Part shown: positions 7,097-52,456 of the stretch, piece by piece
Position numbering within the stretch: position 1 is the first letter of the stretch
How the letters are laid out: each line of letters starts with the position of its first letter
Notes under the pieces: model-generated
Seen by the model: the letters and a program-made list of their open reading frames with translations, nothing else
Databases searched by the model: none
Told to the model about the DNA's origin: nothing
Made by a program: the position numbers and the translations under genes
IMG/VR virus record: IMGVR_UViG_3300034082_002361
Span: 1-52,456 of that record
Source of the DNA: a virus
Direction: 5' to 3' (one strand)
DNA length: 52,456 nt

Positions 7097-8507
7097 TCCT
7101 GAAGTACAGAAATTATTTCTAGAGATGATGATGCAAGACGCAGAAACTTATGTGCGTGTACAGAACATCTACAATCCAGAAAATTTTGATCGTAGCTTGC
7201 GTGCAGTGGCAGAGTTTATTAAACGGCACAGCGACGATCATAAAACATTACCTACCAGAGATCAGATTCGAGCCACCACTGGAGTAGAGCTACGTCCGGT
7301 ACCTGACATGATTGAAGGACACTACAACTGGTTTTTAGAAGAGTTCGAAGGCTTTAGCAGACGCAATGAATTAGAGCGTGCTATTTTAAAAGCCGCAGAC
7401 TTGCTGGAAAAAGGTGAATACGATCCTGTGGAGAAACTGATTAAAGATGCAGTACAGATCAGTCTAACCAAAGACATGGGCACAGATTATTTTGCTGATC
7501 CTAGAGCTAGACTGTTGGCCATCAAGAGCAACAACGGGCAGGTCAGTACAGGGTGGCCCACAATGGATGCACGACTGTTTGGCGGAATGAACAGGGGTGA
7601 GTTAAACATCTTTGCCGGCGGATCAGGATCTGGTAAAAGTTTATTCATGCAGAATATCGCTATCAATTGGTTGCAGGCCGGACTTAATGGGGTATTTTTA
7701 ACATTGGAACTCAGCGAAGGGCTCACTGCCATGCGTATGGATGCCATGGTGGCAAATTGCAGCACCAAAGAAATATTCAAGGATCTAGACACACTGGAAA
7801 TGAAGATACGCATGGCAGGAAAGAAGTCGGGCAAACTGCGTATCAAGTACATGCCAGCACAAAGCAATGTGAATCAAATACGTGCATACCTGAAAGAATT
7901 AGAAATACAAACTGGAATGAAGTCTGATTTTATCATGGTTGATTACTTGGACTTGGTCATGCCGGTTAGTGCCAAAGTTAGCCCCAGTGACTTGTTTGTC
8001 AAGGACAAGTATGTAAGTGAAGAATTACGTAACCTGGCCAAAGAATTCAATATCTTGATGATCACTGCAAGTCAATTGAACCGTAGTGCAGTAGAAGAAA
8101 TTGAATTTGATCACAGTCATATTTCAGGCGGCATAAGTAAAATTAACACAGCAGATAATGTGTTTGGTATTTTTACCAGCCGCGCCATGAAAGAGCGAGG
8201 CCGGTACCAGATCCAATTGATGAAGACACGTAGCAGCAGCGGTGTTGGAACCAAAGTGGATCTAGAATTTAATATGGAAAGCTTGCGAATCACCGACCCC
8301 GGTGAAGATGCACAAACTGAAAACGGTGGCTTTGGTCATCAGACCAGTCGAGGCATCATGGATCAAATCAAGGGCACAAGCACTGTTTCTCCCATGATTG
8401 CAGCCAAACCGCGAGAAGGTTTCAATATTGAAAGCAAAATAGTAGGCAACGTTGACAGTGCTAAACTAAAACAAATGCTTGCTGGAATTAAGAACAAATC
8501 AGAATGA
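7080..8507 (+). CDS. 41: Replicative DNA helicase, T4 gp41/DnaB-like
   Basis: 475 residues, the same length as T4 gp41. A hexameric 5'-3' helicase that unwinds the fork and recruits primase. The Walker A motif is GGSGSGKS at about 180-187, Walker B is IMVDYLDLV at about 285-293, and a RecA-like switch segment MITASQLNRSA follows. The N-terminal 130 residues correspond to the DnaB N-terminal domain. The start overlaps the preceding SGNH gene by 17 nt. The downstream gene begins in an ATGA overlap, so it probably lies on the same transcript. Confidence 0.93.
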   Translation: MTKDYNPEVQKLFLEMMMQDAETYVRVQNIYNPENFDRSLRAVAEFIKRHSDDHKTLPTRDQIRATTGVELRPVPDMIEGHYNWFLEEFEGFSRRNELERAILKAADLLEKGEYDPVEKLIKDAVQISLTKDMGTDYFADPRARLLAIKSNNGQVSTGWPTMDARLFGGMNRGELNIFAGGSGSGKSLFMQNIAINWLQAGLNGVFLTLELSEGLTAMRMDAMVANCSTKEIFKDLDTLEMKIRMAGKKSGKLRIKYMPAQSNVNQIRAYLKELEIQTGMKSDFIMVDYLDLVMPVSAKVSPSDLFVKDKYVSEELRNLAKEFNILMITASQLNRSAVEEIEFDHSHISGGISKINTADNVFGIFTSRAMKERGRYQIQLMKTRSSSGVGTKVDLEFNMESLRITDPGEDAQTENGGFGHQTSRGIMDQIKGTSTVSPMIAAKPREGFNIESKIVGNVDSAKLKQMLAGIKNKSE

Positions 8508-8998
8508 CACAACCTACCAGCGAAACAATAAATTTTGAGCTACACCTTTTGTCTGAATTCTGGAATACGCCGCCGTTGGCAACCATCACACTTGATGGTT
8601 GCGAATATTTTAATGGCCCAGTTCCTGCAGGATCAACAGTTGTAAAGTTTAATCATACCTGTGACTTTGATAAATCACACAGGTTAACTTTGGACAGACA
8701 AGGCAAGACCGTTGACGAAATTCGTACTGAGCCTGATGGGACACGATCAGAACAGTACTTAACCATTGAGAAAATCAAGATAGATGGAGTAGATATAAGA
8801 AATATTATTTGGACTTACAGTGTTAACGTTCCGGAGTATCCTGAACCTTGGGCATCAATGCACATTGCAGCAGGCAATCAGTTAAACAAAGAGGTAATAG
8901 GCGAAACTAGATTTGGTCATAATGGAACGTGGCACTTGGATTTTACAAGCCCGTTTTATATTTACATAATGAGATGGATGGGAGGAGGACTACATTGA
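8504..8998 (+). CDS. Conserved phage protein of unknown function, beta-rich
   Basis: 164 residues, no recognised domain. It is rich in beta-forming stretches (for example ATITLDGCEYF and EKIKIDGVDIRNIIW), suggesting a beta-sandwich, and ends with a motif ETRFGHNGTWHLDFTSPFY. No signal peptide or membrane segment. The start overlaps the helicase stop and its stop overlaps the TTG start of the aminotransferase-like gene, so these genes are translationally coupled. Its position as first gene of an aminotransferase/amidinotransferase operon suggests a partner or scaffold role, which is inference. Confidence 0.6.
   Translation: MTQPTSETINFELHLLSEFWNTPPLATITLDGCEYFNGPVPAGSTVVKFNHTCDFDKSHRLTLDRQGKTVDEIRTEPDGTRSEQYLTIEKIKIDGVDIRNIIWTYSVNVPEYPEPWASMHIAAGNQLNKEVIGETRFGHNGTWHLDFTSPFYIYIMRWMGGGLH
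8981..8988 (+). promoter_or_regulatory. Strong ribosome binding site that fixes a TTG start
   Basis: GGAGGAGG lies 6 nt before the TTG at 8995. The only in-frame ATGs upstream are inside the previous gene and lack such a site. Confidence 0.75.
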
Positions 8999-9819
8999 TT
9001 ATATATAACGGTATAGAATTAAACGAACGACTTATTCCTGTGGCAGATGCTTACATGATGAGTCTTAAACAAAACTGGTATGCACAGTCACAGAAAATAG
9101 TTGACAAAGATGCCTTTAGTAACGTAGCCAACACATGGTTTAAATCAAGCAAGCTGGTAAATCTTCATGGGTGGAACCAGTTTCCGTGTGTTGACGTGAC
9201 CATGGGCAATACTCATTACATTGAATCGTTTGTGCTAAAATATGGATGGGACAATTTTCAGCTTCTGCCTGAAGATTACGGGTATTATGCCATGATGGGA
9301 AAATTTGGTACACATCCAGGCGAACTTACTCCAAACATGCCATTAATAGTATCTTTACCAAACTGGAAATATGCAGATATTCGTCCAGAATGGAACGACG
9401 TGTTAAAGGAATGCGAAGAAAAGAACATTGATATACACATTGACTTTGCTTGGTTAACCACAGCAAGGGATATTGATTTTGACGTAGGGCATCCTAACAT
9501 AAAGTCATTGGCAATGAGCATGAGCAAATATAACATGCAGTGGAACAGAGTGGGATTGCGTTGGTCAAAACAACGTACCATGGATTCTATTACTATGTTT
9601 AACCATTATTACGGTGATGTCAACAGTGGAATTATATCATGCGGTGCATACATGATGAATAACTTACCAAGAGACTATGTATGGGATGTGTATGGCGCAA
9701 AATATGACAGTTTGTGCCAAGAGCATAATTTGATTAAAACTAAGATGTTACACGTGGCCAAAATCCCCGGAGATGATTATCCCAAAGGAATTGGCCATCT
9801 ATTAAAGGAAGGAGAATAA
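8995..9819 (+). CDS. PLP-dependent aminotransferase-like protein
   Basis: 274 residues starting at TTG 8995, chosen because of the GGAGGAGG just upstream; it overlaps the previous TGA. The core looks like a fold-type I aminotransferase: D150 in HIDFAW (the Asp that contacts the PLP ring nitrogen), then AMSMSKYNMQWNRVG, where K178 would form the Schiff base and R185 fits the S-x-S-K...R-x-G pattern. It is short compared with normal class I/II enzymes (about 400 residues) and lacks much of the small domain. It lies directly before an amidinotransferase, so a transamination followed by transfer of an amidino group onto the new amine is plausible. Family assignment is by motif only. Confidence 0.6.
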   Translation: MIIYNGIELNERLIPVADAYMMSLKQNWYAQSQKIVDKDAFSNVANTWFKSSKLVNLHGWNQFPCVDVTMGNTHYIESFVLKYGWDNFQLLPEDYGYYAMMGKFGTHPGELTPNMPLIVSLPNWKYADIRPEWNDVLKECEEKNIDIHIDFAWLTTARDIDFDVGHPNIKSLAMSMSKYNMQWNRVGLRWSKQRTMDSITMFNHYYGDVNSGIISCGAYMMNNLPRDYVWDVYGAKYDSLCQEHNLIKTKMLHVAKIPGDDYPKGIGHLLKEGE

Positions 9820-9820
9820 A

Positions 9821-10972
9821 ATGACATATTCAGTATATCAAACCTGGGATAAATTAAATGTCTGTGCAGTGGGCAGTGCTTACCCACCAGAATTCTATTC
9901 ATTTATAAAAAATACAAATGTCAGATCAGTAATGGAAAAAATTTCCATGGAAACCGAGGAAGATTATCAGGCTTTGATTGCGTTTTTACAATCACATGAT
10001 GTTGATATTGTGCGTACCAAAGTTCAGGACAATGCCTTGATAGGTGATAAACTATTATCACCACCATTATCGCCTAGAGACCATTTTGGTATGATAGGTG
10101 AAAAGTTTTATACACCGGAGCCTGCACGTAATAGAAAATGGAACTACATCCATGGTCCTTTTTATCCAAAAGATCCCCCACAAACTCAAGAGGAATTTGA
10201 GGATTTACCTAAATACATAAAAAAAGATCTTTCTGAAAGACATTTTACCAATTCGTTGTTTGATGTATACACATTTGATTACGGAGCATTAAAACCAATA
10301 GTGGATTTAGTGGCTCAACACGGAAATGAAATTTTATTAAACAAGAACATTGACTCTGCTATGTGTTGTCAAGTAGGAGTAGATTTATATTTTGGTACAT
10401 GGCCTGGACAAGACAAAAATAGATTACTAGAGTGTATGCAGCAGGAGTTTCCTGACTATCGATGTCATGCTGTAGAAACAGATGGTCATCTTGATGGGGT
10501 GTTTTGTCCTGTTAAAGAAGGATTAATATTATGCAATAACAATTATGTAGATAAAATTAATTTTGCTACGTTGTTCCCTGGATGGGAAGTAGTACCAATA
10601 GGTAGACAAGTGCAACATAAAGAGTACGAATATAATCATTTAAAACAAAAAAACGCAGGTCGATGGTGGGTTCCTGGAGAAGAGTACAACGATGATTTCA
10701 CAGATTTTGTAAACTCTTATATGGATTTCTGCACTGGTAACATTGAAGAAACAACAATTGGTGTGAATATATTAATGGTTGACGAAAATACATTGCTTTG
10801 TTCTGAAGAAGATGCAAAAATTTTTAAAATACTAGAACAACACAGAATAACTCCACATGTAGTTTCTAATAGACACCATAATTTTTGGGACAACGGTATA
10901 CATTGCATGACAACAGATCTAGATAGGACGGGACATCGCAAAGATTATTTTCCTGGTAGACGAGTACTGTGA
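9821..10972 (+). CDS. Amidinotransferase (GATM/StrB-like)
   Basis: 383 residues, a normal length for glycine or inosamine-phosphate amidinotransferases. These pentein-fold enzymes move an amidino group from arginine to an amine. Visible features are the opening WDKLNVCAVGSAYPP, a catalytic His/Asp segment ETDGHLDGVFCPV (H223, D225) and the nucleophilic cysteine C362 in DNGIHCMTTDLDR. A strong ribosome binding site (AAGGAGAAT) precedes the ATG one base after the aminotransferase stop. A second amidinotransferase begins at 52057. The acceptor is unknown; an aminated sugar or cyclitol made by the upstream enzyme is one possibility. Confidence 0.85.
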   Translation: MTYSVYQTWDKLNVCAVGSAYPPEFYSFIKNTNVRSVMEKISMETEEDYQALIAFLQSHDVDIVRTKVQDNALIGDKLLSPPLSPRDHFGMIGEKFYTPEPARNRKWNYIHGPFYPKDPPQTQEEFEDLPKYIKKDLSERHFTNSLFDVYTFDYGALKPIVDLVAQHGNEILLNKNIDSAMCCQVGVDLYFGTWPGQDKNRLLECMQQEFPDYRCHAVETDGHLDGVFCPVKEGLILCNNNYVDKINFATLFPGWEVVPIGRQVQHKEYEYNHLKQKNAGRWWVPGEEYNDDFTDFVNSYMDFCTGNIEETTIGVNILMVDENTLLCSEEDAKIFKILEQHRITPHVVSNRHHNFWDNGIHCMTTDLDRTGHRKDYFPGRRVL

Positions 10973-11042: not shown

Positions 11043-11294
11043 TTGCAGAAGCGAACACGTAGCATACTTGATGAATTAGCCCATATGCCTGTGGTCAAAG
11101 ACAGGGAAAATCTTGTGGAAAGTCGTGCTAGTCATGTGATATCAGGCGCTATAAACTTGATCAATTATATCAAGGAAAACTACGATGCCGAGCAAGCAGC
11201 AGAGCTAGAGCGTAGGCTACTCAACAGTATTAGAGCGCAGGATCCAGCAAAATTTGCACGTGGTGTTAGGAGATTCAAAAATGATAGTCAATGA
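11043..11294 (+). CDS. Small conserved phage protein
   Basis: 83 residues from TTG 11043, with TTGGAG just upstream as ribosome binding site. The protein is mostly helical and charged: RSILDELAHMPVVKDRENLV, then ESRASHVISGAINLINYIKE, and a basic C-terminus ARGVRRFKNDSQ. No known domain; similar small proteins are, from memory, common in T4-like cyanophages. It overlaps the nucleotidyltransferase gene by 14 nt, so the two are coupled. Confidence 0.7.
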   Translation: MQKRTRSILDELAHMPVVKDRENLVESRASHVISGAINLINYIKENYDAEQAAELERRLLNSIRAQDPAKFARGVRRFKNDSQ

Positions 11295-17478: not shown

Positions 17479-18177
17479 ATGATCACTCCAAGATTTAACT
17501 ACGTTCCACTAGCAAGAGAAACACTAGAGGGCAAGCGTCATTACGCACTGCCTGATGGTAGCCGTGTGCCCAGTGTCACAACCATATTAGAAAAAACCAA
17601 ACCTGCAGAAGCGCGGCAGGCACTACAAGAGTGGCGCAATAGAGTGGGTACAGAACGTGCCCAGCAGATTACCACAGAAGCTGCCAATCGTGGAACACGC
17701 ATGCACACCTATCTTGAGCGTTATGTGAAAAATGATGACATAGGTGATTTTCCTAGTAACCCATTTGCACAACCTTCGTGGTTCATGGCAGCAAAAGTGA
17801 TACTAGAGGGGCTACACCATGCTGATGAATTTTGGGGTAGCGAAGTACCGTTGTATTACAGTGGGCTATATGCCGGCACTACCGACCTAGTGGGCACCTG
17901 GAAGGGACAACCTGCTATTATGGATTTTAAACAAAGTAACAAGGTCAAGAAGCGTGAATGGATTGACGATTACTTTATACAGTTGGCTGCATATGCAGCA
18001 GCACACAACGAAACACATGGTACACAAATTCGTACAGGGGTAGTGTTAATGTGTGTGAAGCCAGCAACAGAACACGATGATCCAGTGTACCAAGAATTTG
18101 TACTAGAACCTAAAGATTTTGATCACTGGCAAGATCAATGGATGCGTAGAGTAGAACTATACTATCAAACAGCATGA
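17479..18177 (+). CDS. PD-(D/E)XK family exonuclease (RecB-like)
   Basis: 232 residues, starting directly after the iscA stop. The core GTTDLVGTWKGQPAIMDFKQ contains D136 and D149-F-K151, the catalytic PD-(D/E)XK triad, followed by QLAAYAAAHNE, the Q-x-x-x-Y motif of RecB/Cas4-type nucleases. An upstream GTRMHTYLERY supplies the conserved His. There is no cluster-binding cysteine set as in Cas4/AddB. It probably degrades or processes DNA during replication or host DNA breakdown. The next gene starts in an ATGA overlap. Confidence 0.85.
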   Translation: MITPRFNYVPLARETLEGKRHYALPDGSRVPSVTTILEKTKPAEARQALQEWRNRVGTERAQQITTEAANRGTRMHTYLERYVKNDDIGDFPSNPFAQPSWFMAAKVILEGLHHADEFWGSEVPLYYSGLYAGTTDLVGTWKGQPAIMDFKQSNKVKKREWIDDYFIQLAAYAAAHNETHGTQIRTGVVLMCVKPATEHDDPVYQEFVLEPKDFDHWQDQWMRRVELYYQTA

Positions 18178-19358
18178 AAACAAAGTTAACCGAACTGGGT
18201 GCAAATGGTAGCTTTTGTATATTGCCATTCATACATCAGGAAAAAAAATTTAACGGAACTTACCATGTGTGTTGTTATGGCGATCAATTGCAGTCTGATA
18301 ATCCTGCAGATGACTCGTTGGCCAGTTTTAATTCTGATAAAATCAACAGGATCAGATCTGACATGTTGTCTGGCACAAAGCCGGCTGACTGCAATTCCTG
18401 TTATCAACAGGAACACAACAACATTTATAGTCCCAGGCTAAGAGAAAATCACACCTGGACCAATTGGGAATCTACACATACCGCAGTAGAAAAATGCTTT
18501 GATGATTTCACCCATAAAAATACCATCAAACCTATCAGTTATGACCTGAGATACAGCAATACCTGCACTTTAAAGTGCCGTATGTGCAACAGTTCCAGTA
18601 GTAGTGCATTAAATGCAGAATACAAAAAGATACAACATCAATGGCCAGAAAAGTTTTGGACCATTGACAATCCACGAATCAATCATGAAGTTGAATTGCA
18701 TAGTGATGTACAAAAAATATATCTTGCTGGTGGGGAACCACTGGTAGAGCCATTGAATTTAGAATTGCTAGACAAAGTGGCACATCATAATCCAAATTTG
18801 GTTATTCTCATTAACACAAGTTTAAATCATCTAAGTGAAAAATTTGTAACGGTATTAAACAAATTCAAATACTTGACATTGGTAGTGTCAATTGATGGAA
18901 CCCATCAAATCAACGACTATGTACGCAACGGATCAAACTTTGATACAGTGATTAAAAATATTCGTAGCATGGCACACCATGACATGATATTCTCCACATG
19001 TGTGAGCATATACAACGTGTTCAATGTTAAACAATTAGTTACTTTTATTAACAAAGAGTTTCCTAATAGTGGTCATGGCATACACCTGGTCAATGATATT
19101 CCCGAAGTGTTTGTTGACAATGTGCCGCCAGAGCTCAGACCAGGCCTGATTCAGCAATTAGAAACTTGTCTATTGGAGATTTCAGATTTTTCGGCACAAG
19201 GAATTCACAATATAATTACTACATTAAAACAAAATAATTTTGATCACAATCGTTTTAATGATTTTATCAAATATACTAAAATTTTGGATGAATCGCGCGG
19301 CGAATCAATTATCAATATGGTTCCGGAGTTAGCTAAGTATTTCAATGAACAAAGTTAA
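18174..19358 (+). CDS. Radical SAM protein with twitch-like auxiliary cluster region
   Basis: 394 residues. The radical SAM motif is C131-TLK-C135-RM-C138 (CxxxCxxC), binding the [4Fe-4S] cluster that cleaves S-adenosylmethionine; LAGGEPL is the following SAM-contacting 'GGE' motif. Before the core, C15, C33/C34, C73 and C76 are spaced like an auxiliary cluster (twitch/SPASM-like) placed at the N-terminus. The same layout occurs in the protein at 31244. Substrate unknown; such enzymes often modify peptides or sugars. It overlaps the next radical SAM gene by 14 nt. Confidence 0.85.
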   Translation: MKTKLTELGANGSFCILPFIHQEKKFNGTYHVCCYGDQLQSDNPADDSLASFNSDKINRIRSDMLSGTKPADCNSCYQQEHNNIYSPRLRENHTWTNWESTHTAVEKCFDDFTHKNTIKPISYDLRYSNTCTLKCRMCNSSSSSALNAEYKKIQHQWPEKFWTIDNPRINHEVELHSDVQKIYLAGGEPLVEPLNLELLDKVAHHNPNLVILINTSLNHLSEKFVTVLNKFKYLTLVVSIDGTHQINDYVRNGSNFDTVIKNIRSMAHHDMIFSTCVSIYNVFNVKQLVTFINKEFPNSGHGIHLVNDIPEVFVDNVPPELRPGLIQQLETCLLEISDFSAQGIHNIITTLKQNNFDHNRFNDFIKYTKILDESRGESIINMVPELAKYFNEQS

Positions 19359-20325
19359 ATTTAAATTCTTAGACATACCAATTATCAGATCCTGCAATTT
19401 AGAATGTGGTGGCTGTTTGACATTTTCCGACAGTAAAAAGATAAAAGGATTGGTAAATTTAGAACAGAGCCGCCCTTGGCTGGAACATTGGGCCGCTCGA
19501 TTGGACCCTTCTGCTGTGACTATATTTGGTGGTGAGCCACTACTGCATCCTAATTTCATTGGTTGGTGCAAACAAGTTCGACAACTTTGGCCTGATGCAG
19601 AATTACGCATTAATACAAATGGATACTATTTAAATACTTTATACGATAAAATTGAGGAGCTGTTTACTGAGGACATCAGACCGCAGTTTATAGTAAGCAT
19701 TCAAACTGGTCATGAACCGTACTACGGCATGGTCAAAGAAAATATCGAGCAACTTAAACAACTAGTATTAGCCCATCTTCAACGCAAGCACCCAGAAAAA
19801 ACCGTCACCTGGAATTTGTGGTTAGATGAACCAGAAATACATAAAAAATGGTGGAGAATTGAGATAGACGGAGTAGACGCCGGAATACGTATCACCAGTT
19901 GCGAGCAATGGCAAATCCCGTGGCAAGCACATTACCAAGGTGTTGAAACTAAATTAAAACCTTTTTACGATTATAATGATCCCTGGCACGTTGACAATCA
20001 CAGTTTCTGTCAGGCAAAAAATTTTATAAATTTGTACGAAGGAAAAATATATAAATGCCCAACAGTGGCAGTACTGAATCAGACTCTACAAACCTTTAAT
20101 TTGGCCGATGATTTGGACTGGGCATCTTATCTGACCAATTATTCCAGCCTAGATATAACAGCAGATAATGATCAAATTACCGCCTGGTTTCAGCAACAGC
20201 AAGGTCCGGAGAAGGTGTGCAACATGTGTGGTTTTAGTGGACCAAACTCAACCAACGGACATCTAAACAGGCACGAGCTTAAAAAAGGCTGGAATTTTGA
20301 AATAGTTCCTACGCAATCGTTGTAA
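19345..20325 (+). CDS. Radical SAM protein
   Basis: 326 residues. The cluster motif is SCNLECGGC (C17, C21, C24) close to the N-terminus, followed by FGGEPLLHPNF, the GGEP SAM-binding motif. Further cysteines near the end (SFCQAKNF, YKCPTVAVL and KVCNMCGF) suggest an auxiliary cluster at the C-terminus. It is translationally coupled to the preceding radical SAM gene, so the pair may act in sequence. Substrate unknown. Confidence 0.85.
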   Translation: MNKVKFKFLDIPIIRSCNLECGGCLTFSDSKKIKGLVNLEQSRPWLEHWAARLDPSAVTIFGGEPLLHPNFIGWCKQVRQLWPDAELRINTNGYYLNTLYDKIEELFTEDIRPQFIVSIQTGHEPYYGMVKENIEQLKQLVLAHLQRKHPEKTVTWNLWLDEPEIHKKWWRIEIDGVDAGIRITSCEQWQIPWQAHYQGVETKLKPFYDYNDPWHVDNHSFCQAKNFINLYEGKIYKCPTVAVLNQTLQTFNLADDLDWASYLTNYSSLDITADNDQITAWFQQQQGPEKVCNMCGFSGPNSTNGHLNRHELKKGWNFEIVPTQSL

Positions 20326-31243: not shown

Positions 31244-32542
31244 ATGATTATTCCATACTCTAATACGTTTGATAAAACTACGGACAGGCACAAATGGGCA
31301 AATGATAACCAACATATTTGTTTATTGCCGTATACCAGCCTGCAATATTTTCATTCATCAAAAACAGTGAGTCCGTGTTGCAACCTAGAAAAACCCAAGT
31401 TGGGGGATTTTTTAACACCCATACACAAACTTAAACAAGCAATAGAATCTGGCAACACTTACGACAATTGTAAAGCTTGTTATCAATGTGAAGATGCAGG
31501 CAAGATCAGCGAAAGAACTAGGTATTTGATTGAATTAAACGACCAGCAGCTGGATAACTTAATTCATAAACAGAAAATTGATCAGGAATTCCATATTCAT
31601 TGTACATTGTCAAATCTTTGTAATATGGCCTGCCGTAGTTGTAATTCTACCACCAGTAGTTTATTTTCCAAAATTGACATTGGTTACGAAATATTAGTAG
31701 ATACCATGTCTGATAATACAGCGTATTGGCAATCCCTTCTTGACAGCATTTCTCGAGAAACCCAAATTCACGACTCTGTAAATCTAGTTATATCAGGTGG
31801 CGAAGGAATGGTACAATCTGATTTTCATAAAATTGTATCTTGGTTGATTGGGACTGGCATTAGCAAGCAGATTACCTTGACAATTAATACCAATGGATCA
31901 ATTGACGATGATCGGTTGTTTACGGATCTCTGCAGCAATTTTAAAAGAGTGTCGTTGGCTATCAGCGTTGACAGCATATATGAAAATTATCATTATGTAA
32001 GGTGGCCTGCAAACTGGAACAAAATTCATAAAAATTTAAATTCTTTTGTGAGATATCAAAAGACTTTTGAAAATTTTAATTTTTTTCTAACACCAGTTTG
32101 GTCAATTAATAATATTTTTTATTTGCCAGCCTGGGTAAAGTTTTTTGAATCTTTTGCTGCCGAGCACAAAATAGACATCACCGCATACGATACGCCACTG
32201 TGGCAACCTGAGTGGCTAGATGTTCAAAATTTGCCAGTGTACATTAAACACATTCTACTAGAAAAAATTTCTCTAGTATTATCTAATCAATGGCTAATGC
32301 AGAACAAAACCTTTCACGCCAATATCACAAATCTAGTAAACTTATGTATGCAACCAACTACCAATCAATCACTGGTACATTGGAAGGAATATCTGACCTA
32401 TAGTGCCAAATGGGATGTGCGTACCAATACCAATCTAGCAGAGCACAATGTGTTATTATATAATATTATGAATCAACAAGATAAAGATTTATTTCTATCG
32501 CTCAAAAATCATGCCAAGTCAAGATACGCATTTGTTAGTTAA
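31244..32542 (+). CDS. Radical SAM protein with N-terminal twitch-like cysteines
   Basis: 432 residues. Radical SAM motif NLCNMACRSC (C126, C130, C133) and a GGEGMV loop. Before it are C26, C45/C46, C76 and C79, the same pattern as in the protein at 18174 (C15, C33/C34, C73, C76), so the two are paralogs. AT-rich. Its 3' end overlaps the convergent radical SAM gene by 8 nt. Substrate unknown. Confidence 0.85.
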   Translation: MIIPYSNTFDKTTDRHKWANDNQHICLLPYTSLQYFHSSKTVSPCCNLEKPKLGDFLTPIHKLKQAIESGNTYDNCKACYQCEDAGKISERTRYLIELNDQQLDNLIHKQKIDQEFHIHCTLSNLCNMACRSCNSTTSSLFSKIDIGYEILVDTMSDNTAYWQSLLDSISRETQIHDSVNLVISGGEGMVQSDFHKIVSWLIGTGISKQITLTINTNGSIDDDRLFTDLCSNFKRVSLAISVDSIYENYHYVRWPANWNKIHKNLNSFVRYQKTFENFNFFLTPVWSINNIFYLPAWVKFFESFAAEHKIDITAYDTPLWQPEWLDVQNLPVYIKHILLEKISLVLSNQWLMQNKTFHANITNLVNLCMQPTTNQSLVHWKEYLTYSAKWDVRTNTNLAEHNVLLYNIMNQQDKDLFLSLKNHAKSRYAFVS

Positions 32543-34550
32543 ACCAGGATCCGTGTCCTTGCCAAACTAGATCAATGTTGTAGTCTGATCTGACATCGGA
32601 CTCTGGCCACCACGGTGCATGTGGGTTGTCTGGGCAGGTAAATTTTACTACACAATTGGCTGTCCATTGCCCGTCATTGTTAATTTTAAAATTATATGTG
32701 GCGGCAAATTGATCAGCCAACCTATTTCCGTATTCGTTTAGGTCCCATTCGGGATCAAAAGTCACAGTCATTTCCATGGCTTTTTTGGCTCTGGATCTCC
32801 ATAAAGTACGAATTAATGGCCAAACTTCGTTGACCACAGTCTTAAGAAATACACAATCTAGTGTAGCATCTTTAATGATCTCATAATCAAATTCTTCATA
32901 CGGGATATCTAGATATTGGCCAATGACTGATATATTAGTTTCAAATTTTACATCATAGGTCTTGCTTAACCGAGAATTTTTATCGCCATCAAAATGAAAG
33001 CCCGGCATCTGTTCAATAAAAATATTAAAACTTTTGAATCGTATCAACCTATGAATTTTGGTATTGCCCAGGTCCTTGGTGGCCCAGCCCATGCAGAAAT
33101 ATTTTGGATGTACATTGTAAAAGTCAGGGTCGTCCTGCACTCGTCCAGGACCAATATTCATTGTACCACGGGCCATTGACGTTAGGTTACAGTTTTGTAT
33201 GCGCCAGGCCAGTGTCATTGTTTTGGCAAAGTCCACGGATTCTTCGTTGAGATAGCACAGCATCCAGTTGGTCTGAGCACCAATGTGTACTGACGCACCG
33301 TCGCGCAAGTTCTTTTCCACTTCAGCTATGGTTACGTTTTTACGCATGGCATCAAGCACTCGCTGGCTTCCACTCTCTATTCCGTAGTTCAATGCCATGC
33401 AACCACTGGCAGCCAGATCTTTGTAGTACTCTAGGTCCATGCGCTCGTCGCAGCGAGCATACCCCTCCCACTTGATCTTTAGCCCACGTTCAACCACACC
33501 CAGTGCAAATGCACGAAGTTCGTTGATGTTTCCGTTTACCAAGCTGTCAATAAACCAAAACACGTTGGTGCCATAGGTACGGTATTGATGTTCGACTTCT
33601 TCTAGTATAAACGGCGCCTGTCTACTGCGATACTTCCAGTAGTGTGTTTCCTGACAGAATGTGCATTTGGCCACACAACCACGACTCAGTTCTGAACTGA
33701 TGGCATTGGGTATCATGTAAGCATTGACGTCAAGATCTGAATAGTCCGGAAACGGCAGCTGATCTAGGTTGATCCTTTTTGTTTTGTCTGCGTTGTATTG
33801 ATATTCAGTCAATGGGATTCCATTTTCAATATCGTCTAATAATTGCAGCAGCAATTCCTCACCTTCACCTTTGACCACATGATCAAACTCAGGAAACGGC
33901 TCAGGGTTCCACTGGATATGTGATCCGCCGGCAATAATTTTTGTATTGGGTAAACGTTCTCTAATTTTTCTTGCCAGCCAAAGAGTAGGAAACACGTTGG
34001 TGTAGTACAAACTGAAACCCACAACGTCTGGCTTGAGCTTGATTATTTTTTCAAGGTATTCTTCAAGCACAGGCTCCACATGCCGACTCAGTCTGCGTTC
34101 GTACATGTCGTCAAGCCAAAGATAGTCCCTGGACCCATGTCCTTCATAAGGATCTTCGTCTATTACCTTTTTGAGTTTGTGCCAGGTATCCACGTTCCAA
34201 TCAAACACACTAGTCCGATATCCTGCTGCTCTAGTGACAGCAGCCAATCTTGCAATATTGTACGGAGCAAAGAACACTGCCCATTTGGGCATGAGAATCA
34301 ATGCAATGTGTGTGTGCCGGGTGACATTTTCAATTTTGACCACGGACAAGTTCTTTTGTGCAGCAGGCATGGCATATTTGAGCATGCCTTTGGCAGTGGC
34401 CAGATATTTGTCTTCGGGCATGTCAGGACTGTTAAATTCTTGGTGTAACTCTGCCAACGATTTTGCCATACCGGAATCTACCGGATTGCGCAAGGTTTCT
34501 TGTATGTCTTTGTTTGTACGAATCTGAATAGGAATTATTTTGCCGCTCAT
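32535..34550 (-). CDS. B12-binding-domain radical SAM protein
   Basis: 671 residues on the minus strand. Residues about 80-240 form a cobalamin-binding-like Rossmann domain (PYNIARLAAVTRAAG, VVGFSLYYTNVFPTLWLAR, KIIAGGSHIQWNPEPF, VVKGEGEELL); the DxHxxG histidine motif is not seen, so base-off binding is uncertain. The radical SAM motif is SRGCVAKCTFCQ (C292, C296, C299), followed by YGIESGSQRVL, typical of this class. Members methylate or rearrange unactivated carbons in natural products, lipids or sugars. A late-type box 5 nt before its ATG suggests late leaderless expression. Substrate unknown. Confidence 0.88.
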   Translation of the reverse strand: MSGKIIPIQIRTNKDIQETLRNPVDSGMAKSLAELHQEFNSPDMPEDKYLATAKGMLKYAMPAAQKNLSVVKIENVTRHTHIALILMPKWAVFFAPYNIARLAAVTRAAGYRTSVFDWNVDTWHKLKKVIDEDPYEGHGSRDYLWLDDMYERRLSRHVEPVLEEYLEKIIKLKPDVVGFSLYYTNVFPTLWLARKIRERLPNTKIIAGGSHIQWNPEPFPEFDHVVKGEGEELLLQLLDDIENGIPLTEYQYNADKTKRINLDQLPFPDYSDLDVNAYMIPNAISSELSRGCVAKCTFCQETHYWKYRSRQAPFILEEVEHQYRTYGTNVFWFIDSLVNGNINELRAFALGVVERGLKIKWEGYARCDERMDLEYYKDLAASGCMALNYGIESGSQRVLDAMRKNVTIAEVEKNLRDGASVHIGAQTNWMLCYLNEESVDFAKTMTLAWRIQNCNLTSMARGTMNIGPGRVQDDPDFYNVHPKYFCMGWATKDLGNTKIHRLIRFKSFNIFIEQMPGFHFDGDKNSRLSKTYDVKFETNISVIGQYLDIPYEEFDYEIIKDATLDCVFLKTVVNEVWPLIRTLWRSRAKKAMEMTVTFDPEWDLNEYGNRLADQFAATYNFKINNDGQWTANCVVKFTCPDNPHAPWWPESDVRSDYNIDLVWQGHGSWFN

Positions 34551-41061: not shown

Positions 41062-42948
41062 ATGTCTAACCGTATTATTGGCATAGATCTCGGAACTACA
41101 AATAGCTGCGTAGCAGTAATCGAAAATGGCCAACCTAAAGTAATTGAAAATTCAGAAGGCGCACGTACTACGCCCAGCGTGGTTGCCTACACTGCAGAAG
41201 AAATTATTGTCGGCGCTGGTGCAAAGCGTCAAGCAGTTACAAATCCAAAAAGTACTATCTATGCTGCCAAGCGTCTAATTGGACGTAAATTCAAAGAAGA
41301 GGCAGTTCAAAAAGACATTGGCCTTATGCCTTATACCATTATTGAAAGTAGTAATGGTGATGCATGGGTCTCAACCGGGGACAAAGAACTGGCCCCGCCC
41401 CAGATCTCAGCAGAAGTCATTCGTAAAATGAAAAAGACTGCCGAGGACTATTTGGGACGTGAAGTAACACAGGCAGTTATCACTGTGCCTGCTTACTTCA
41501 ATGACAGTCAACGCCAAGCAACCAAAGATGCTGGCGCAATTGCAGGACTAGAAGTGCTGCGGATTATCAATGAGCCGACCGCAGCGGCCTTGGCATATGG
41601 AATCGATAAAAATGAAAAAGTTGATCGCAAGATCGCTGTGTACGATTTGGGTGGTGGTACCTTTGATGTTAGTATCATTGATATTGCTAACGTGGATGGT
41701 GATAAGCAATTTGAAGTACTTTCCACCAATGGTGATACATTCCTAGGTGGCGAAGACTTTGACCAACGCATTATGGATTACTTGATTGACCAGTTTAAAA
41801 AAGAAACTGGAGTTGATCTAGCCCTAGACGTTATGGCCCTGCAACGACTCAAAGATGCAGCAGAACGTACCAAGATTGAACTCAGCAGCAGCACACAAAC
41901 AGATGTAAACTTACCTTACATCACAGCAGATGCCACAGGTCCCAAGCACATGAACATCAAGTTGACCCGTTCCAAACTGGAAGGCCTGGTTGAAGAACTG
42001 ATTCAACGCAGTATTGAACCGTGCCGTGTGGCCATGCGTGATGCAGGTTGTGTGCCCGGCGACATTGATGAAGTTATCTTGGTAGGCGGTATGACACGCA
42101 TGCCCAAGGTACAGGAAGCAGTTGAACAATTATTTGGACGGGCACCACGACGTGATGTCAATCCTGATGAAGCAGTAGCGGTTGGCGCAGCAGTACAAGG
42201 TGCTGTGTTGGGTGGTAGCCGTAATGACGTACTACTCCTTGATGTAACCCCACTAAGCCTGGGAATCGAAACCATGGGCGGAGTGATGACCAAACTAATC
42301 CAAAAGAACACCACTATTCCTACCAAGCATAGTCAAGTGTTTTCCACAGCAGAAGATAACCAGCCTGCTGTGACAATCAAAGTTTGTCAAGGAGAACGTG
42401 AACTTGTGCAATATAACAAACTGTTAGGTGAATTCAACTTGGAAGGAATTGCACCTGCTCGACGCGGAACGCCGCAGATTGAAGTTTCGTTGGATGTTGA
42501 TGCCAATGGTATTCTCAAAGTAAGTGCTCGTGATAAAAGTACTGGCAAAGAAAACAAGATCACTATCAAATCAGATTCAGGTCTAAGCCAAGAGCAGATT
42601 GACGAAATGATTCGCGATGCTGAAGCCAATGCTGATGCAGACGCCAAACAGCGCGAATTGATTGAGGCACGTAATCAAGCAGATGCAATTATTCACAAAG
42701 TTAAAACTGATCTTGCCGAGGTTGACGGCCAACTTACCGAGGACCAGACGAAACAAATTAATGACAAAATAACGGAACTACAAGAGACGATTGCAGGCAC
42801 AGACAAGGAAGTGATCACTACCAAGATATCAGAATTGTTTGTGGCCGCCAATGCAATCAATGAAGCAAAAGCAGCAGCCACATCACAGTCTACTACGCCG
42901 GCAGCAGATGACACGGTGGTTGATGCTGAGTTTAAAGAAACAAAGTAA
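41062..42948 (+). CDS. dnaK: Hsp70 chaperone DnaK, full length
   Basis: 628 residues (E. coli DnaK 638). ATP-dependent folding chaperone. The nucleotide-binding domain shows [34 protein letters not shown] and [20 protein letters not shown]; the interdomain linker and substrate-binding domain begin around [19 protein letters not shown] and include the [19 protein letters not shown] strand; the helical lid and acidic tail end [13 protein letters not shown]. All parts look intact and no frameshift is seen. No dnaJ or grpE is in the window, so host cochaperones would be needed. A full-length DnaK is unusual for a phage. Neighbouring hsp20 and clpS suggest a proteostasis module. Confidence 0.97.
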
Positions 42949-43026: not shown

Positions 43027-43464
43027 ATGACAACATATATTACAACCTTTGATTTACCTACTATCCATCGCCACGCTGTGGGATTTGATAGACTATTTAA
43101 CGAACTGGGACGCACTTTTGCCAACAGTAAGGTAGATGGTAATTACCCTCCGCACAACATTGTGCAAATTGATGAAACACATTATGCCATTCAATTGGCA
43201 GTGGCTGGGTTCGCTGAGGATGAACTTGATATTGAATTCAAGGACAATGTGCTCACTGTAAAAGGTGAACAGCATCAACAGGACGAATACACTTATCATT
43301 ATCGTGGTATCAGTTCTCGCGCATTTACTCGTGCATTTCCATTGGCTGAACACATGGAAGTCAAAGGTGCCACTGTGATAAACGGTATTTTGGCAGTCAG
43401 CATTGAGCACATTGTGCCCGACGAACAAAAACCCAAGAAAATTGCTATTACGTTTGCAAAGTAA
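43027..43464 (+). CDS. Small heat-shock protein, Hsp20/IbpA family
   Basis: 145 residues, as for IbpA. The N-terminus FDLPTIHRHAVGFDRLFNEL matches IbpA-type openings; the alpha-crystallin domain includes HNIVQIDETHYAIQLAVAGF, EDELDIEFKDNVLTVKGEQ and the HYRGISSRAFTRAFPLAEH segment, ending with a conserved NGILAVSIEHIVP strand. It binds unfolding proteins and passes them to DnaK. It lies 78 nt after dnaK with a strong AAAGGAGAAA site and a shared leader motif, so the two are probably co-regulated. Confidence 0.93.
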   Translation: MTTYITTFDLPTIHRHAVGFDRLFNELGRTFANSKVDGNYPPHNIVQIDETHYAIQLAVAGFAEDELDIEFKDNVLTVKGEQHQQDEYTYHYRGISSRAFTRAFPLAEHMEVKGATVINGILAVSIEHIVPDEQKPKKIAITFAK

Positions 43465-47249: not shown

Positions 47250-47702
47250 ATGAAATCCTTTTTATTAACAGCGTTGCTGTGTTTTTCCGTCACAGCCACA
47301 GCCAAAGAATTTAGATTGCAGTTTTCCGATCCCACCCAAGTTGTAGTCAATGACAGCGACTGGGTCAAGGTATCACACAACGACATATACGATCTTTATA
47401 TATCTCAGGATGCCATTGGTACCAACGAACAGTCGCCCTATATACACTCCATGGTGCTGTTTCATGACACACCTGGCACCACATTCAACAACATAATTGG
47501 TCCAGTCAAGCGTATTTTTACATTTGGTAACCTTGATTGCCGGCAAGGGGTACTGACACTATTGAACGACTGGTTTGTTGACATAACCAATCAAGTAGTG
47601 TATACTCAGAGTCATGCACCGGGAGAGTATCTTACTGAGGTACTAACTAATCACACACCACGGAACGATGCGTACAATGCAATCTGCAAAAAAGGTACCT
47701 AA
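47250..47702 (+). CDS. Small secreted protein
   Basis: 150 residues from ATG 47250. MKSFLLTALLCFSVTATA is a signal peptide; the mature protein is beta-rich (KEFRLQFSDPTQVVVNDSDW) with two cysteines (NLDCRQGVLT, NAICKKGT) that could form a disulfide in the periplasm. No domain recognised. It overlaps the 2OG oxygenase gene by TAATG. Confidence 0.6.
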   Translation: MKSFLLTALLCFSVTATAKEFRLQFSDPTQVVVNDSDWVKVSHNDIYDLYISQDAIGTNEQSPYIHSMVLFHDTPGTTFNNIIGPVKRIFTFGNLDCRQGVLTLLNDWFVDITNQVVYTQSHAPGEYLTEVLTNHTPRNDAYNAICKKGT

Positions 47703-50340: not shown

Positions 50341-51567
50341 ATGAAAGTTGGTTTTATAGGCTTAGGTAAATTAGGATTATCATGCGCAGAAGTAATGCAA
50401 AAAGCATATGATGTAACTGGTTATGATATTTACCCAAGATCAAGTACACAAATTAAAATATCTGATAGTCTGCGCGGTGCAGTTGTTAACAAAGATATTA
50501 TTTTTGTAGCAGTACAAACTCCACACGATCCTGCATATGACGGCAGTCAACCAATTACTCATTTACCCAACAAAGACTTTGATTATTCTATAGTTAAAGA
50601 CGTGCTAAAACAAATTGATATTTGGGCCGGTCCTGAGCAACTAGTAGTTCTTATTAGTACTGTGCTGCCAGGCACGGTTCGTAGGGAACTGCGTGAGTGC
50701 TTGACACATGCACGTTTCATTTATAATCCGTACCTTATTGCCATGGGCAGTGTTGAATGGGACATGGTCAACCCTGAAATGGTCATAATTGGTACCAAGG
50801 ACGGTGACCAAACTGGTGATGCAAAGTTGCTCATTGATTTTTACCAGCCATTGATGGAAAATGATCCACGTTATGTTGTTGGTACCTGGGACGAAGCAGA
50901 GTCAATCAAGATATTTTATAACACATTTATTAGCACAAAAATTGCACTAGTCAACATGATTCAAGATGTAGCAATGAAGAACGGCAACATCAATGTAGAT
51001 GTGGTCACTGACGCATTGTCACACAGCACCACTCGTATCATGAGCAGCAAGTACATGACAGCAGGCATGGGTGATGCCGGACCCTGTCATCCTAGAGACA
51101 ACATTGCACTGCGTTGGTTGGCTGAAAACTTGAGTTTAGGGTATGATATATTTGATACCATTATGAATGCCAGGGAAGTACAAGCAAAAAATCTAGCACG
51201 TTTTTTATTTCAAAAACAAAAACAGTACAACTTGCCCATCTATATACTGGGCAAGTCATACAAACCTGATGTGGATATACTGGACGGAAGCTACAGTTTA
51301 CTAATTGGGCACTATTTAGAAACCATGCAGGCCAAGTTTTATTACATAGATCCATTAACTGGTGATGCGCCACCGTTTGACAACGTGCCGGTAATTGCTT
51401 TTTTAGCACACAACAGAAACATAACTTACGGATACACCGGAGAGCAACAGGAACAAGAACTATATGTTGAGCTTGATTCCGGCAGTGTAATTGTTGATCC
51501 TTGGAGACAATACACCACACAAAAAGATTATAAGGTGATACATTATGGCAACACACGACTCGTTTAA
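50341..51567 (+). CDS. UDP-glucose/GDP-mannose dehydrogenase family protein
   Basis: 408 residues, normal for UDP-sugar dehydrogenases. They oxidise the C6 alcohol of a nucleotide sugar to an acid in two NAD-dependent steps. The NAD-binding loop is GFIGLGKLGLSCAE; the catalytic lysine is in ISTK200 and the thioester cysteine is C249 in DAGPCHPRDNIAL with D253. This differs slightly from the common GGSCFPKD version, so the substrate may be unusual. A C-terminal UDP-binding domain is present (GKSYKPDVDILDGSYSLLIG). The product, a uronic acid nucleotide, fits a glycan pathway with its neighbours. It overlaps the 2OG-type gene by 23 nt. Confidence 0.85.
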   Translation: MKVGFIGLGKLGLSCAEVMQKAYDVTGYDIYPRSSTQIKISDSLRGAVVNKDIIFVAVQTPHDPAYDGSQPITHLPNKDFDYSIVKDVLKQIDIWAGPEQLVVLISTVLPGTVRRELRECLTHARFIYNPYLIAMGSVEWDMVNPEMVIIGTKDGDQTGDAKLLIDFYQPLMENDPRYVVGTWDEAESIKIFYNTFISTKIALVNMIQDVAMKNGNINVDVVTDALSHSTTRIMSSKYMTAGMGDAGPCHPRDNIALRWLAENLSLGYDIFDTIMNAREVQAKNLARFLFQKQKQYNLPIYILGKSYKPDVDILDGSYSLLIGHYLETMQAKFYYIDPLTGDAPPFDNVPVIAFLAHNRNITYGYTGEQQEQELYVELDSGSVIVDPWRQYTTQKDYKVIHYGNTRLV

Positions 51568-52060
51568 TATTGCCCCATTCTGGGACGATGAATACAAGAA
51601 CTTGGCATACAAAAAAGAACAATTCAATGATCCTGGCACCATGATTGAGTGGGAGGATCAAGGGTTCCGTGGCCCATTTGGAGGCCACATGTGCGACATG
51701 CGCGATCCGCAACCGGCTTGGAATTCGCAGTTTGTGGACTTCTTTGCCACATATGAAAAGTGGAAAAACATAGGAACCAGTTACTATCGCATGGATGCTG
51801 GCAGTATGCTTCCAGAGCATGTGGACACATATCGTAGATATATTGATCTGTTTGATCTTGCAGGCAAAGAGAATACCATACGTAGAGCAGTGGTGTTCCT
51901 GGATCACTGGCATTCAGGACACTATGTTGAATGTAACAAACAAGGTTATACCAATTGGGTCAAAGGATTTTGTCTGACATGGGATTGGGATAGCCCACAT
52001 ATTGCTGCCAATCTAGGAACAGTTCCTAGGTATACCTTGCAAATCACCGGGCATGTATGA
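51545..52060 (+). CDS. 2-oxoglutarate dioxygenase/aspartyl-hydroxylase-like protein
   Basis: 171 residues. MLPEHVDTYRRY gives H92-x-D94, SPHIAANLG gives H152, and PRYTLQITG gives R162, the iron triad and 2-oxoglutarate arginine of this superfamily, similar to aspartyl/asparaginyl beta-hydroxylases. WNS..FV and HWHSGHYVE lie between. Start at ATG 51545, 23 nt inside the dehydrogenase gene, and ATGA overlap with the amidinotransferase, so the three genes form one operon. It probably hydroxylates a pathway intermediate. Confidence 0.65.
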   Translation: MATHDSFNIAPFWDDEYKNLAYKKEQFNDPGTMIEWEDQGFRGPFGGHMCDMRDPQPAWNSQFVDFFATYEKWKNIGTSYYRMDAGSMLPEHVDTYRRYIDLFDLAGKENTIRRAVVFLDHWHSGHYVECNKQGYTNWVKGFCLTWDWDSPHIAANLGTVPRYTLQITGHV

Positions 52061-52456
52061 TATCATCGTTCAATGAGTGGGATCAGTTAAAAGAAATTGT
52101 AGTAGGCACAGCAGACTTTGCCAATTGGCCCACAGATGATCCTGTGTTTGCTCAAGAAAGTGAAAAAACCACCTGGACAGAAACTCCAGTACCCAGTGGT
52201 CCAGTGCCGGACTGGATCATTGACGAAGCCAACCAAGACCTTGATATACTGGCAGATACATTGGAAAAACTTGGGGTGATTGTGCATAGACCAATGCCAA
52301 TTGATTTTCAAGCTCGTGATGGCATGTACAACTATTGCCCACGTGACAGGCTGTTGGTTTATGGCAACACCGTGGTGGATCCGGCCATGATGTATCCTTG
52401 CAGAGACATGGAGTCAGAAGCATTAGAACAGGTTATATATCGTGCTGATACAGTAT
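52057..52456 (+). CDS. Second amidinotransferase (GATM-like), cut by window end
   Basis: 133 visible residues; the gene continues beyond the window. MISSFNEWDQLKEIVVGTAD is the typical opening of glycine/inosamine-phosphate amidinotransferases, and ARDGMYNYCPRDRLLVYGNT matches the following conserved strand. The catalytic His and Cys would lie downstream. It is only distantly similar to the amidinotransferase at 9821. It starts in an ATGA overlap with the oxygenase-like gene. Confidence 0.85.
   Translation, partial: MISSFNEWDQLKEIVVGTADFANWPTDDPVFAQESEKTTWTETPVPSGPVPDWIIDEANQDLDILADTLEKLGVIVHRPMPIDFQARDGMYNYCPRDRLLVYGNTVVDPAMMYPCRDMESEALEQVIYRADTV

What the first reader, a model, noticed from the sequence alone, without database searches (positions are those of the whole stretch)
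8504..10972. Aminotransferase-amidinotransferase operon in a phage
A beta-rich unknown protein, a short PLP-aminotransferase-like protein (D150, K178, R185) and a full amidinotransferase (H223, C362) are coupled behind the helicase gene. In streptomycin-type pathways transamination followed by amidino transfer makes guanidino-cyclitols, so this operon may add a guanidino group to a sugar or other acceptor. The minimal 274-residue aminotransferase form is itself unusual.
Basis: partly seen in the sequence, partly recalled or inferred. Interest (0 to 1): 0.65.

Follow-up and report, generated by a model that had tools for sequence, protein, structure and literature searches.

The report
Phage mini-aminotransferase and guanidine-transfer cassette
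A marine-type phage carries a compact set of genes (a sugar-binding-like protein, an unusually small vitamin-B6 enzyme and a guanidine-transferring enzyme) that recurs in many other uncultured phages and probably builds a guanidine-bearing sugar or similar compound whose role is unknown.

Summary
Three overlapping genes follow the DnaB-like helicase gene. P2 (274 aa) is predicted with high confidence as a complete but compressed fold-type I PLP enzyme (pLDDT 95; Z 16.6) and keeps the Schiff-base Lys, pyridine Asp and phosphate Arg. P3 (383 aa) is an AGAT/StrB1-type amidinotransferase (family profile E 1e-27) with intact catalytic residues. P1 (164 aa) has a CBM60-like carbohydrate-binding fold (Z 11.4).

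The set recurs. Of 48 non-redundant P2 loci, 32 have P1 just upstream, 25 have P3 close by, and 38 have a fourth gene, a small 2OG-Fe(II)-oxygenase-like protein that the window lacks. The small size is the family norm. P2 is almost confined to viruses (263 viral relatives; 1 in genomes).

Cyanophage S-SCSM2R has one operon with a short DegT-type aminotransferase, a 2OG oxygenase, an amidinotransferase and glycosyltransferases. The window's far end has UDP-glucose dehydrogenase, a 2OG-oxygenase-like protein and a second amidinotransferase.

I favour synthesis of a guanidino-sugar or guanidino-glycan, inferred from context; no substrate is shown. New variant of known enzyme chemistry.

The parts
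8504..8998 (+). P1, 164 aa, CBM60/CBM36-like jelly-roll protein; start overlaps the helicase stop
   Evidence: AF2 pLDDT 95.6; VIA Z 11.4 to 2xhh (115 res, 3.0 A) and 2xfd (107 res, 2.7 A), next row Z 6.0; no Pfam or PHROG match
8995..9819 (+). P2, 274 aa, minimal fold-type I PLP enzyme (aminotransferase-like); TTG start overlapping the P1 stop
   Evidence: AF2 pLDDT 95.0, pTM 0.91; VIA Z 16.6, 256 of 274 residues aligned to a 386-residue enzyme; K178, D150, R185 invariant where present
9821..10972 (+). P3, 383 aa, AGAT-type amidinotransferase
   Evidence: phmmer 5.5e-7 to HsvA; family profile 1.3e-27 to AGAT, 7.8e-26 SxtG, 9.5e-25 HsvA, 2e-21 StrB1; D87, H223, D225, C362 align to AGAT D170, H303, D305, C407
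7080..8507 (+). flank: DnaB-like replicative helicase, the usual upstream neighbour of P1 in same-strand loci
   Evidence: PF03796 9.4e-22, phrog_19 2.7e-70; helicase cluster in 29 of 48 loci
11043..11294 (+). flank: small 83-aa conserved gene; in L016, L036, L038 the 2OG-like gene PX stands between P3 and this gene, here it is missing
   Evidence: gene map
50341..51567 (+). UDP-glucose dehydrogenase, first gene of the window's second amidinotransferase group
   Evidence: PF00984 4.9e-16, PF03721 1.5e-13; phrog_9148 2.3e-98
51545..52060 (+). 2OG-Fe(II)-oxygenase-like protein, 171 aa
   Evidence: 26.5% to the annotated 2OG oxygenase SSCSM2R_308, E 2e-19
52057..52456 (+). second amidinotransferase gene, cut by the window end
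   Evidence: 39% over 115 aa to 'inosamine amidinotransferase' SSCSM2R_309, E 3e-21, compared from base 52060; phrog_25854 5.9e-4

Best explanation
The genes form a mobile phage biosynthetic cassette that puts a guanidino group on a sugar, or on a sugar-bearing acceptor. P2 would use PLP to install an amine on a carbonyl carbon. P3 would then move the amidino group of the host's arginine onto that amine, leaving ornithine. In most relatives a small 2OG-Fe(II) oxygenase would hydroxylate or oxidise the acceptor before or after this. P1, with its CBM60-like fold, would bind the glycan and hold or present the substrate. Shown here by computation: the folds, the intact core residues, and the recurrent gene association. 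Inferred: the sugar acceptor, the order of steps, transamination (rather than another PLP reaction) and the final place of the product (DNA, virion or host envelope).
For: P1 is carbohydrate-binding-like. P2 and P3 have the folds and residues. Linkage: P1 in 32, PX in 38 and P3 in 25 of 48 non-redundant P2 loci, in several orders and on either strand of the backbone. P2-linked P3 genes need 3 changes on the P3 tree, at least 2 forced by starred branches. Among 78 non-redundant P3 loci, 9 have a GalE-like epimerase, 8 a glycosyltransferase-like gene and 7 a ~198-aa DegT/DnrJ/EryC1 aminotransferase close by; one or two members of each were checked in Pfam, where the epimerase and both aminotransferases pass their cut-offs and the glycosyltransferase does not. 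Isolated cyanophage S-SCSM2R has GT, GT25, GT, 195-aa DegT-type aminotransferase, radical SAM, GT, 2OG oxygenase, 'inosamine amidinotransferase', GT2 in a row, and a second amidinotransferase plus 2OG pair beside KdsA/KdsB. The window's own end has UDP-glucose dehydrogenase, a homologous 2OG-oxygenase-like protein and a homologous amidinotransferase. P1-family genes in three other phage contigs follow a GT-like gene.
Against: No substrate or activity data. No glycosyltransferase lies next to the window's P1-P2-P3, and none was recognised among the 39 window proteins scanned against Pfam and/or PHROGs. P3 is missing near P2 in 23 of 48 loci, and from the whole held record in 8 of 17 P2 records, though records may be fragments. 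P2 lacks a conserved Arg in its columns 236-274, so it may not take a standard amino donor. The glycosyltransferase-like calls near P1 relatives are below Pfam's cut-off. P1's metal and ligand residues were not tested. P1-family proteins also sit between radical SAM genes (L214) and in records with no P2 match. Across the phage family, the position aligned to AGAT Asp254 is Asp in 20 and Asn in 55 of 102 rows; the window has Asp.
Confidence: 0.45

Rival explanations
1. The cassette makes a free guanidino small molecule (for example a modified guanidino amino acid or amine) that acts on the infected cell, a competitor or a defence system; P2 works on an amino acid, the 2OG oxygenase hydroxylates it and P3 adds the amidino group.
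For: P2's structural neighbours include the arginine-handling PLP enzymes MppP, RohP and MppQ and GntC. PLP plus 2OG enzymes pair in such pathways (recalled, from no call). AGAT relatives HsvA and SxtG belong to small-molecule pathways (molecule names; pathways recalled). P2 loci mostly lack glycosyltransferase neighbours.
Against: All those structural neighbours are tied with many ordinary aminotransferases. The CBM60-like P1 directly upstream of P2 has no place in it. No exporter, ligase or carrier gene was noticed among the recurrent clusters inspected.
Confidence: 0.25
2. The cassette hypermodifies phage DNA: an oxidised or hydroxymethylated base is aminated by P2 and guanidinylated by P3, shielding DNA from nucleases.
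For: The cassette sits beside the replicative helicase and primase genes in many loci. Phages build hypermodified bases in many steps, some bearing amines (PMC12783734, abstract and section list read; PMC6449724, abstract start read in the listing).
Against: No DNA-modification gene (base hydroxymethylase, base methyltransferase, base kinase, deazaguanine synthesis gene) was recognised among the 39 window proteins scanned, apart from a weak QueE-like radical SAM match. The cassette also occurs away from the helicase, for example L010, L012, L013.
Confidence: 0.15
3. The products modify a protein, for example a virion or host protein: P2, P3 and PX act on side chains and P1 is the modified or targeting protein.
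For: P1 is directly upstream of P2 in all 32 loci that have it, is sometimes duplicated or fused in tandem (L062, L057), and a P1 relative sits between radical SAM/SPASM genes (L214), an enzyme class known for peptide modification (recalled).
Against: P1 is absent in 16 of 48 P2 loci, some of them cut by contig ends. It is a well-folded jelly roll, and no nearly invariant Lys, Ser-rich tail or Cys stands out.
Confidence: 0.1
4. P2 is a non-catalytic or non-transaminase relic that does not act with P3; the genes are neighbours only because they share a cargo hotspot.
For: P3 is common in phages without P2 (P2 in 7 of 78 non-redundant P3 loci). P2 has no conserved Arg where the standard carboxylate clamp would be.
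Against: The core residues are invariant across relatives at 45-83% identity to window P2. The three genes overlap or abut. The gene order varies while the association is kept.
Confidence: 0.05

Closest known systems
L-arginine:glycine amidinotransferase (AGAT) and inosamine-phosphate amidinotransferase StrB1
   Same: Profile match across both halves of the fold; Cys, His and both Arg-binding Asp aligned and conserved
   Different: Below detection by Pfam; the AGAT Met302 position (glycine side; role recalled) is Gly in the window and in 83 of 102 rows, suggesting another acceptor; found in viruses with other partner genes
Class I/II fold-type I PLP aminotransferases and C-S lyases
   Same: Fold over nearly the whole chain (Z 16.6); Lys, Asp and Arg core
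   Different: About 50-150 residues shorter than the solved matches; no sequence-level match in Pfam above cut-off or in PDB profile search; no conserved Arg at the C-terminal end
Glycan operon of Synechococcus phage S-SCSM2R
   Same: A short aminotransferase, a 2OG oxygenase, an amidinotransferase and a radical SAM enzyme in one operon
   Different: The aminotransferase there is DegT-type, not P2; glycosyltransferases are present; no P1 family member was found among the nine of its proteins compared
Radical SAM plus glycine amidinotransferase modules of Campylobacter phages CP220 and CPt10 (PMC2853527, passages read)
   Same: An exchangeable phage module with an amidinotransferase; radical SAM-like genes also stand near 13 of 48 P2 loci
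   Different: No minimal PLP enzyme, CBM-like or 2OG partner is described in the passages read

Membership tests
AGAT-type amidinotransferase | sequence similarity over both halves of the fold | tested here: met
   two stretches, E 1.3e-27 to 2jdx
AGAT-type amidinotransferase | nucleophilic Cys407 and His303 | tested here: met
   C362 and H223 align to them; 100 of 100 ungapped rows, 2 of 102 gapped
AGAT-type amidinotransferase | Arg-binding Asp170 and Asp305 | tested here: met
   D87 in 102 of 102 rows, D225 in 100 of 100 ungapped rows
AGAT-type amidinotransferase | Asp254 of the triad | tested here: inconclusive
   D178 in the window; Asp in 20, Asn in 55 of 102 family rows
AGAT-type amidinotransferase | amidino transfer from arginine | not testable with these tools
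   needs an enzyme assay
Class I/II PLP aminotransferase | fold-type I architecture | tested here: met
   1000 of 1000 aligned chains at Z 8 or more, top 16.6
Class I/II PLP aminotransferase | Schiff-base Lys, pyridine Asp, phosphate Arg | tested here: met
   K178 47 of 47, D150 48 of 48, R185 47 of 47; assigned by motif and spacing, the 3D superposition was not inspected residue by residue
Class I/II PLP aminotransferase | C-terminal carboxylate-binding Arg (Arg386 of AspAT; recalled) | tested here: not met
   no conserved Arg in columns 236-274
Class I/II PLP aminotransferase | sequence match to the family model | tested here: not met
   Pfam: only Pyridoxal_deC at E 0.076, below cut-off; no PLP enzyme in the PDB profile search
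2OG-Fe(II) oxygenase (PX of relatives, absent from the window cassette) | HxD...H metal triad and distal Arg | tested here: met
   H122, D124, H174, R186 in 38 of 38
2OG-Fe(II) oxygenase (PX of relatives) | family-model match | tested here: inconclusive
   one of four scanned members weakly, PF13640 E 0.17; none by PDB profile
CBM60/CBM36 carbohydrate-binding module | jelly-roll fold of vCBM60 | tested here: met
   Z 11.4, 107-115 residues; next match Z 6.0
CBM60/CBM36 carbohydrate-binding module | calcium and sugar-binding residues | not tested
   model coordinates not at hand
Streptomycin-type guanidino-cyclitol pathway | StrB1-type amidinotransferase | tested here: met
   StrB1 E 2e-21 by profile
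Streptomycin-type guanidino-cyclitol pathway | DegT/StrS-family aminotransferase | tested here: not met
   P2 gives no PF01041 match; DegT-type partners occur in other phage loci

The most novel reading that the evidence does not exclude
Phages carry a recurrent, virus-specific pathway, built around a new minimal family of fold-type I PLP enzymes, that makes guanidino-bearing sugars and puts them on phage DNA, virions or the host envelope: a positively charged phage glycan chemistry not found in print in the searches made here, made by at least two unrelated minimal aminotransferases (P2-type and DegT-type) joined to the same amidinotransferase superfamily.
Probability: 0.35. Interest if true: 0.8.

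Novelty: new variant of a known kind. Interest (0 to 1): 0.6.

Why it matters
Amidinotransferase genes are common in phage metagenomes (at least 592 relatives in one capped scan) but are easily read as stray 'glycine amidinotransferase' or creatine genes. Here one class has fixed partners that point to a dedicated pathway. If that pathway adds charged guanidino groups to a phage or host glycan, it would be a new form of molecular disguise or takeover, and P2 would be an unusually small enzyme of its fold class.

Tried and rejected
Sequence search of PDB with P2, alone and as a profile of 48, gave no PLP enzyme; only the predicted fold did. PDB search with P1 and PX profiles gave nothing meaningful. 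tblastn of P1 and of three P2 proteins against 50,697 phage records found no match. The PX gene was not found in the window record with profile A6; a small early profile gave a weak hit at 47702-48361 (E 5e-4) that I do not rely on.

Rejected: that P2 is a truncated pseudogene (46 of 48 cluster representatives are 260-299 aa; the other two are short, at contig ends). Not favoured: creatine synthesis. PMC11360552 (passages read) discusses viral GAMT, the next enzyme of that route; no GAMT gene was recognised beside P3.

Literature searches for prior descriptions. None listed a phage minimal aminotransferase plus amidinotransferase unit; the library lacks most subscription papers and preprints. 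Listings only were seen, except for PMC11360552, PMC8226683 and PMC2853527 (passages) and PMC12783734 (abstract and section list).

Sampling limits: P2 loci are the best 80 of 263 plus those, collapsed from 99 P2 genes to 48 clusters at 90% identity. For the 98-row tree rows under 260 aa and exact duplicates were dropped; long branches (the P3 clades of L070/L085/L013 and of L017/L031/L098, and S309) make the number of origins uncertain. In alignment A5 for P1 the window's own row replaced L021, and the double-length L057 and N-extended L080 were left out of 34 members; L087:2791-3168, only 11% identical, was kept. In A7 the window's P3 replaced L021 and the cut L056 was left out of 25 members; five rows (L022, L023, L025, L026, L027) were added. 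Gene maps use mechanical ORFs of 70 aa or more with overlaps removed greedily, so small genes may be missed.


Full report
WHAT IS THERE. Three genes follow the DnaB-like helicase gene on the + strand: P1 8504-8998, P2 8995-9819 (TTG start), P3 9821-10972. They overlap or abut, so they are probably translated together. The record is a 52,456-base virus record, and the helicase and primase calls (9, 10) fit a tailed phage. P1 and P3 reached no Pfam family at E 1, and P2 only a sub-threshold one (Pyridoxal_deC, E 0.076). PHROGs gave P3 an unnamed family (2e-10) and P2 a weak partial match.

P3. A single-sequence search already finds HsvA, StrB1, SxtG and human AGAT. A profile of 29 phage sequences gives E 1.3e-27 for AGAT and 2e-21 for StrB1, over both halves of the fold. 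From those alignments D87, D178, H223, D225 and C362 stand at AGAT D170, D254, H303, D305 and C407. Over 102 aligned rows (the window and 101 relatives) D87 is in 102, and H223, D225 and C362 in 100 with 2 gaps, while the D254 position varies (Asp 20, Asn 55). The glycine-side Met302 position is Gly in 83 of 102 rows. The chemistry is likely amidino transfer; the acceptor is open.

P2. AlphaFold2 on 48 sequences gives pLDDT 95.0. Against solved structures it is a fold-type I PLP enzyme: the top row is a C-S lyase with Z 16.6, 256 residues aligned, rmsd 4.1, with MppQ, ACC synthase, HisC, MppP and RohP within about one Z unit, so the subfamily cannot be told from this. The matched chains are about 320-425 residues long. 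P2 relatives are 260-299 aa in 46 of 48 clusters, so the small size is a family trait. K178, D150 and R185 do not vary where the row reaches them. Columns 236-274 hold no conserved Arg, so the usual amino-acid carboxylate clamp (recalled) appears to be missing. Two distant relatives (299 and 284 aa) in 216-kb and 167-kb virus records keep the Asp and Lys; one lies between two radical SAM genes and the other beside a 2OG-oxygenase-like gene of the SSCSM2R_308 family.

P1. AlphaFold2 pLDDT 95.6. The only strong structural matches are the calcium-dependent carbohydrate-binding modules 2xhh and 2xfd, Z 11.4, against 6.0 for the next row. P1 relatives also occur without P2: 8 of 18 P3-bearing records match the P1 profile, while the P2 profile matches 2 of the same 18. 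Four of these P1 loci were opened: in three (L215-L217) P1 follows a gene with weak glycosyltransferase likeness, in the fourth (L214) it lies between radical SAM genes (two of the three GT-like genes were scanned in Pfam and one in PHROGs).

RECURRENCE. A scan with P2 found 17 loci, and a profile scan 263 relatives, of which the best 80 were kept. The scan of 84,980 bacterial and archaeal genomes found one, in a Pelagibacter bin, which may be a phage contig. In 48 non-redundant loci P1 is present in 32, always on the same strand and directly upstream; P3 in 25, always on the same strand; PX in 38, on either strand but within three genes. PX has an invariant HxD, H and R set in 38 of 38, the signature of 2OG-Fe(II) oxygenases (recalled), although family models hardly see it. 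From the map: P1-P2-P3 in 14 loci, P3-P1-P2 in 3, P2 with P3 close by but no P1 seen in 8. The nearest relatives (L036, L038, about 70% identical P2) have helicase-P1-P2-P3-PX; the window lacks PX, and no PX was found in the record. Radical SAM-like genes (cluster 9) stand near P2 in 13 of 48 (two members checked, one above Pfam's cut-off).

AGAINST A FIXED PAIR. P3 is absent near P2 in 23 of 48 loci, and from the whole record in 8 of 17 P2-bearing records; most records may be fragments. P3 is far more common than P2: at least 592 viral relatives, with P2 in only 7 of 78 non-redundant P3 loci. On the P3 tree the 26 P2-linked rows need 3 changes, at least 2 forced by well-supported branches, against a shuffled mean of 23.1. 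That suggests more than one joining, with long-branch doubts.

THE SUGAR CLUE. Among the 78 P3 loci another set recurs: a GalE-like epimerase in 9, a glycosyltransferase-like gene in 8 and a ~198-aa DegT/DnrJ/EryC1 aminotransferase in 7; the two aminotransferases scanned pass Pfam's cut-off. This aminotransferase is short too; its S-SCSM2R homologue does not match the P2 profile. In the cultured cyanophage S-SCSM2R the run SSCSM2R_302-310 reads GT, GT25, GT, short DegT-type aminotransferase (annotated 3-amino-5-hydroxybenzoic acid synthase; homologue), radical SAM, GT, 2OG oxygenase, 'inosamine amidinotransferase', GT2. Its other amidinotransferase is followed by a 2OG oxygenase and preceded by KdsB and KdsA. 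The window ends with UDP-glucose dehydrogenase, a 2OG-oxygenase-like protein and a cut amidinotransferase homologous to SSCSM2R_308 and _309. The same enzyme classes thus meet in sugar settings at least three times, once in the window itself.

READING. I think the cassette makes an amine with P2, guanidinylates it with P3 and, in most relatives, hydroxylates or oxidises the acceptor with PX, on a sugar or glycan held by P1 (0.45). Rivals are a free guanidino small molecule (0.25), a DNA hypermodification (0.15), a protein modification (0.1) and mere neighbours (0.05). All rest on context; none has been tested at the bench.

PRIOR WORK. Campylobacter phages CP220 and CPt10 have an exchangeable module with five radical SAM genes and a putative glycine amidinotransferase (PMC2853527, passages). 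A survey of ocean viral metabolic genes treats the creatine route (PMC11360552, passages). A glycine amidinotransferase is listed in a table of a karst-lake virus study (PMC8226683, passages). Searches listed no description of the P1-P2-P3-PX unit.

VERDICT. Real, recurrent and virus-enriched; the enzyme kinds are known, the minimal PLP family and its partnership look new; the function is a reasoned guess.

Noticed in passing
L139-L207, e.g. L191:4070-6500: A different conserved amidinotransferase unit: c1 (167 aa, weakly DUF6875), c2 (145 aa, no family), P3, c3 (111 aa, DUF6614), with c1 in 35, c2 in 33 and c3 in 27 of 78 P3 loci. Function unknown.
   Followed up: partly
window 50341-52456: UDP-glucose dehydrogenase, 2OG-oxygenase-like protein and a cut second amidinotransferase, homologous to an operon pair of Synechococcus phage S-SCSM2R.
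   Followed up: partly
window 18174-19358, 19345-20325, 31244-32542, 32535-34550: Four radical SAM-like genes, one with a B12-binding domain (the third is just below Pfam's cut-off).
   Followed up: no
L148:6143-6736, L210:9863-10450, L211:7986-8630: Very short (about 195-215 aa) DegT-type aminotransferases in phage glycan operons, including isolated Flavobacterium and Synechococcus phages.
   Followed up: partly
L148, L185, L190, L198 and others: A GTP cyclohydrolase I gene stands near the epimerase-amidinotransferase-DegT group; its cluster is in 9 of 78 P3 loci (one member checked in Pfam).
   Followed up: no
window 41062-42948 and 43027-43464: Full-length Hsp70 (PF00012, 8.5e-254) and an Hsp20-family gene in the phage.
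   Followed up: no
window 44314-45156: PurM-like AIR synthase (PF00586, phrog_1207), a host-type purine gene.
   Followed up: no
L109: The only P2 relative in the genome collection lies in a Pelagibacter metagenome bin, beside gene clusters shared with the viral contigs, so it is probably a phage contig in the bin.
   Followed up: partly
L057:348-1499: A 383-aa protein with two P1 domains in tandem; L062 has two separate P1 genes in a row.
   Followed up: no
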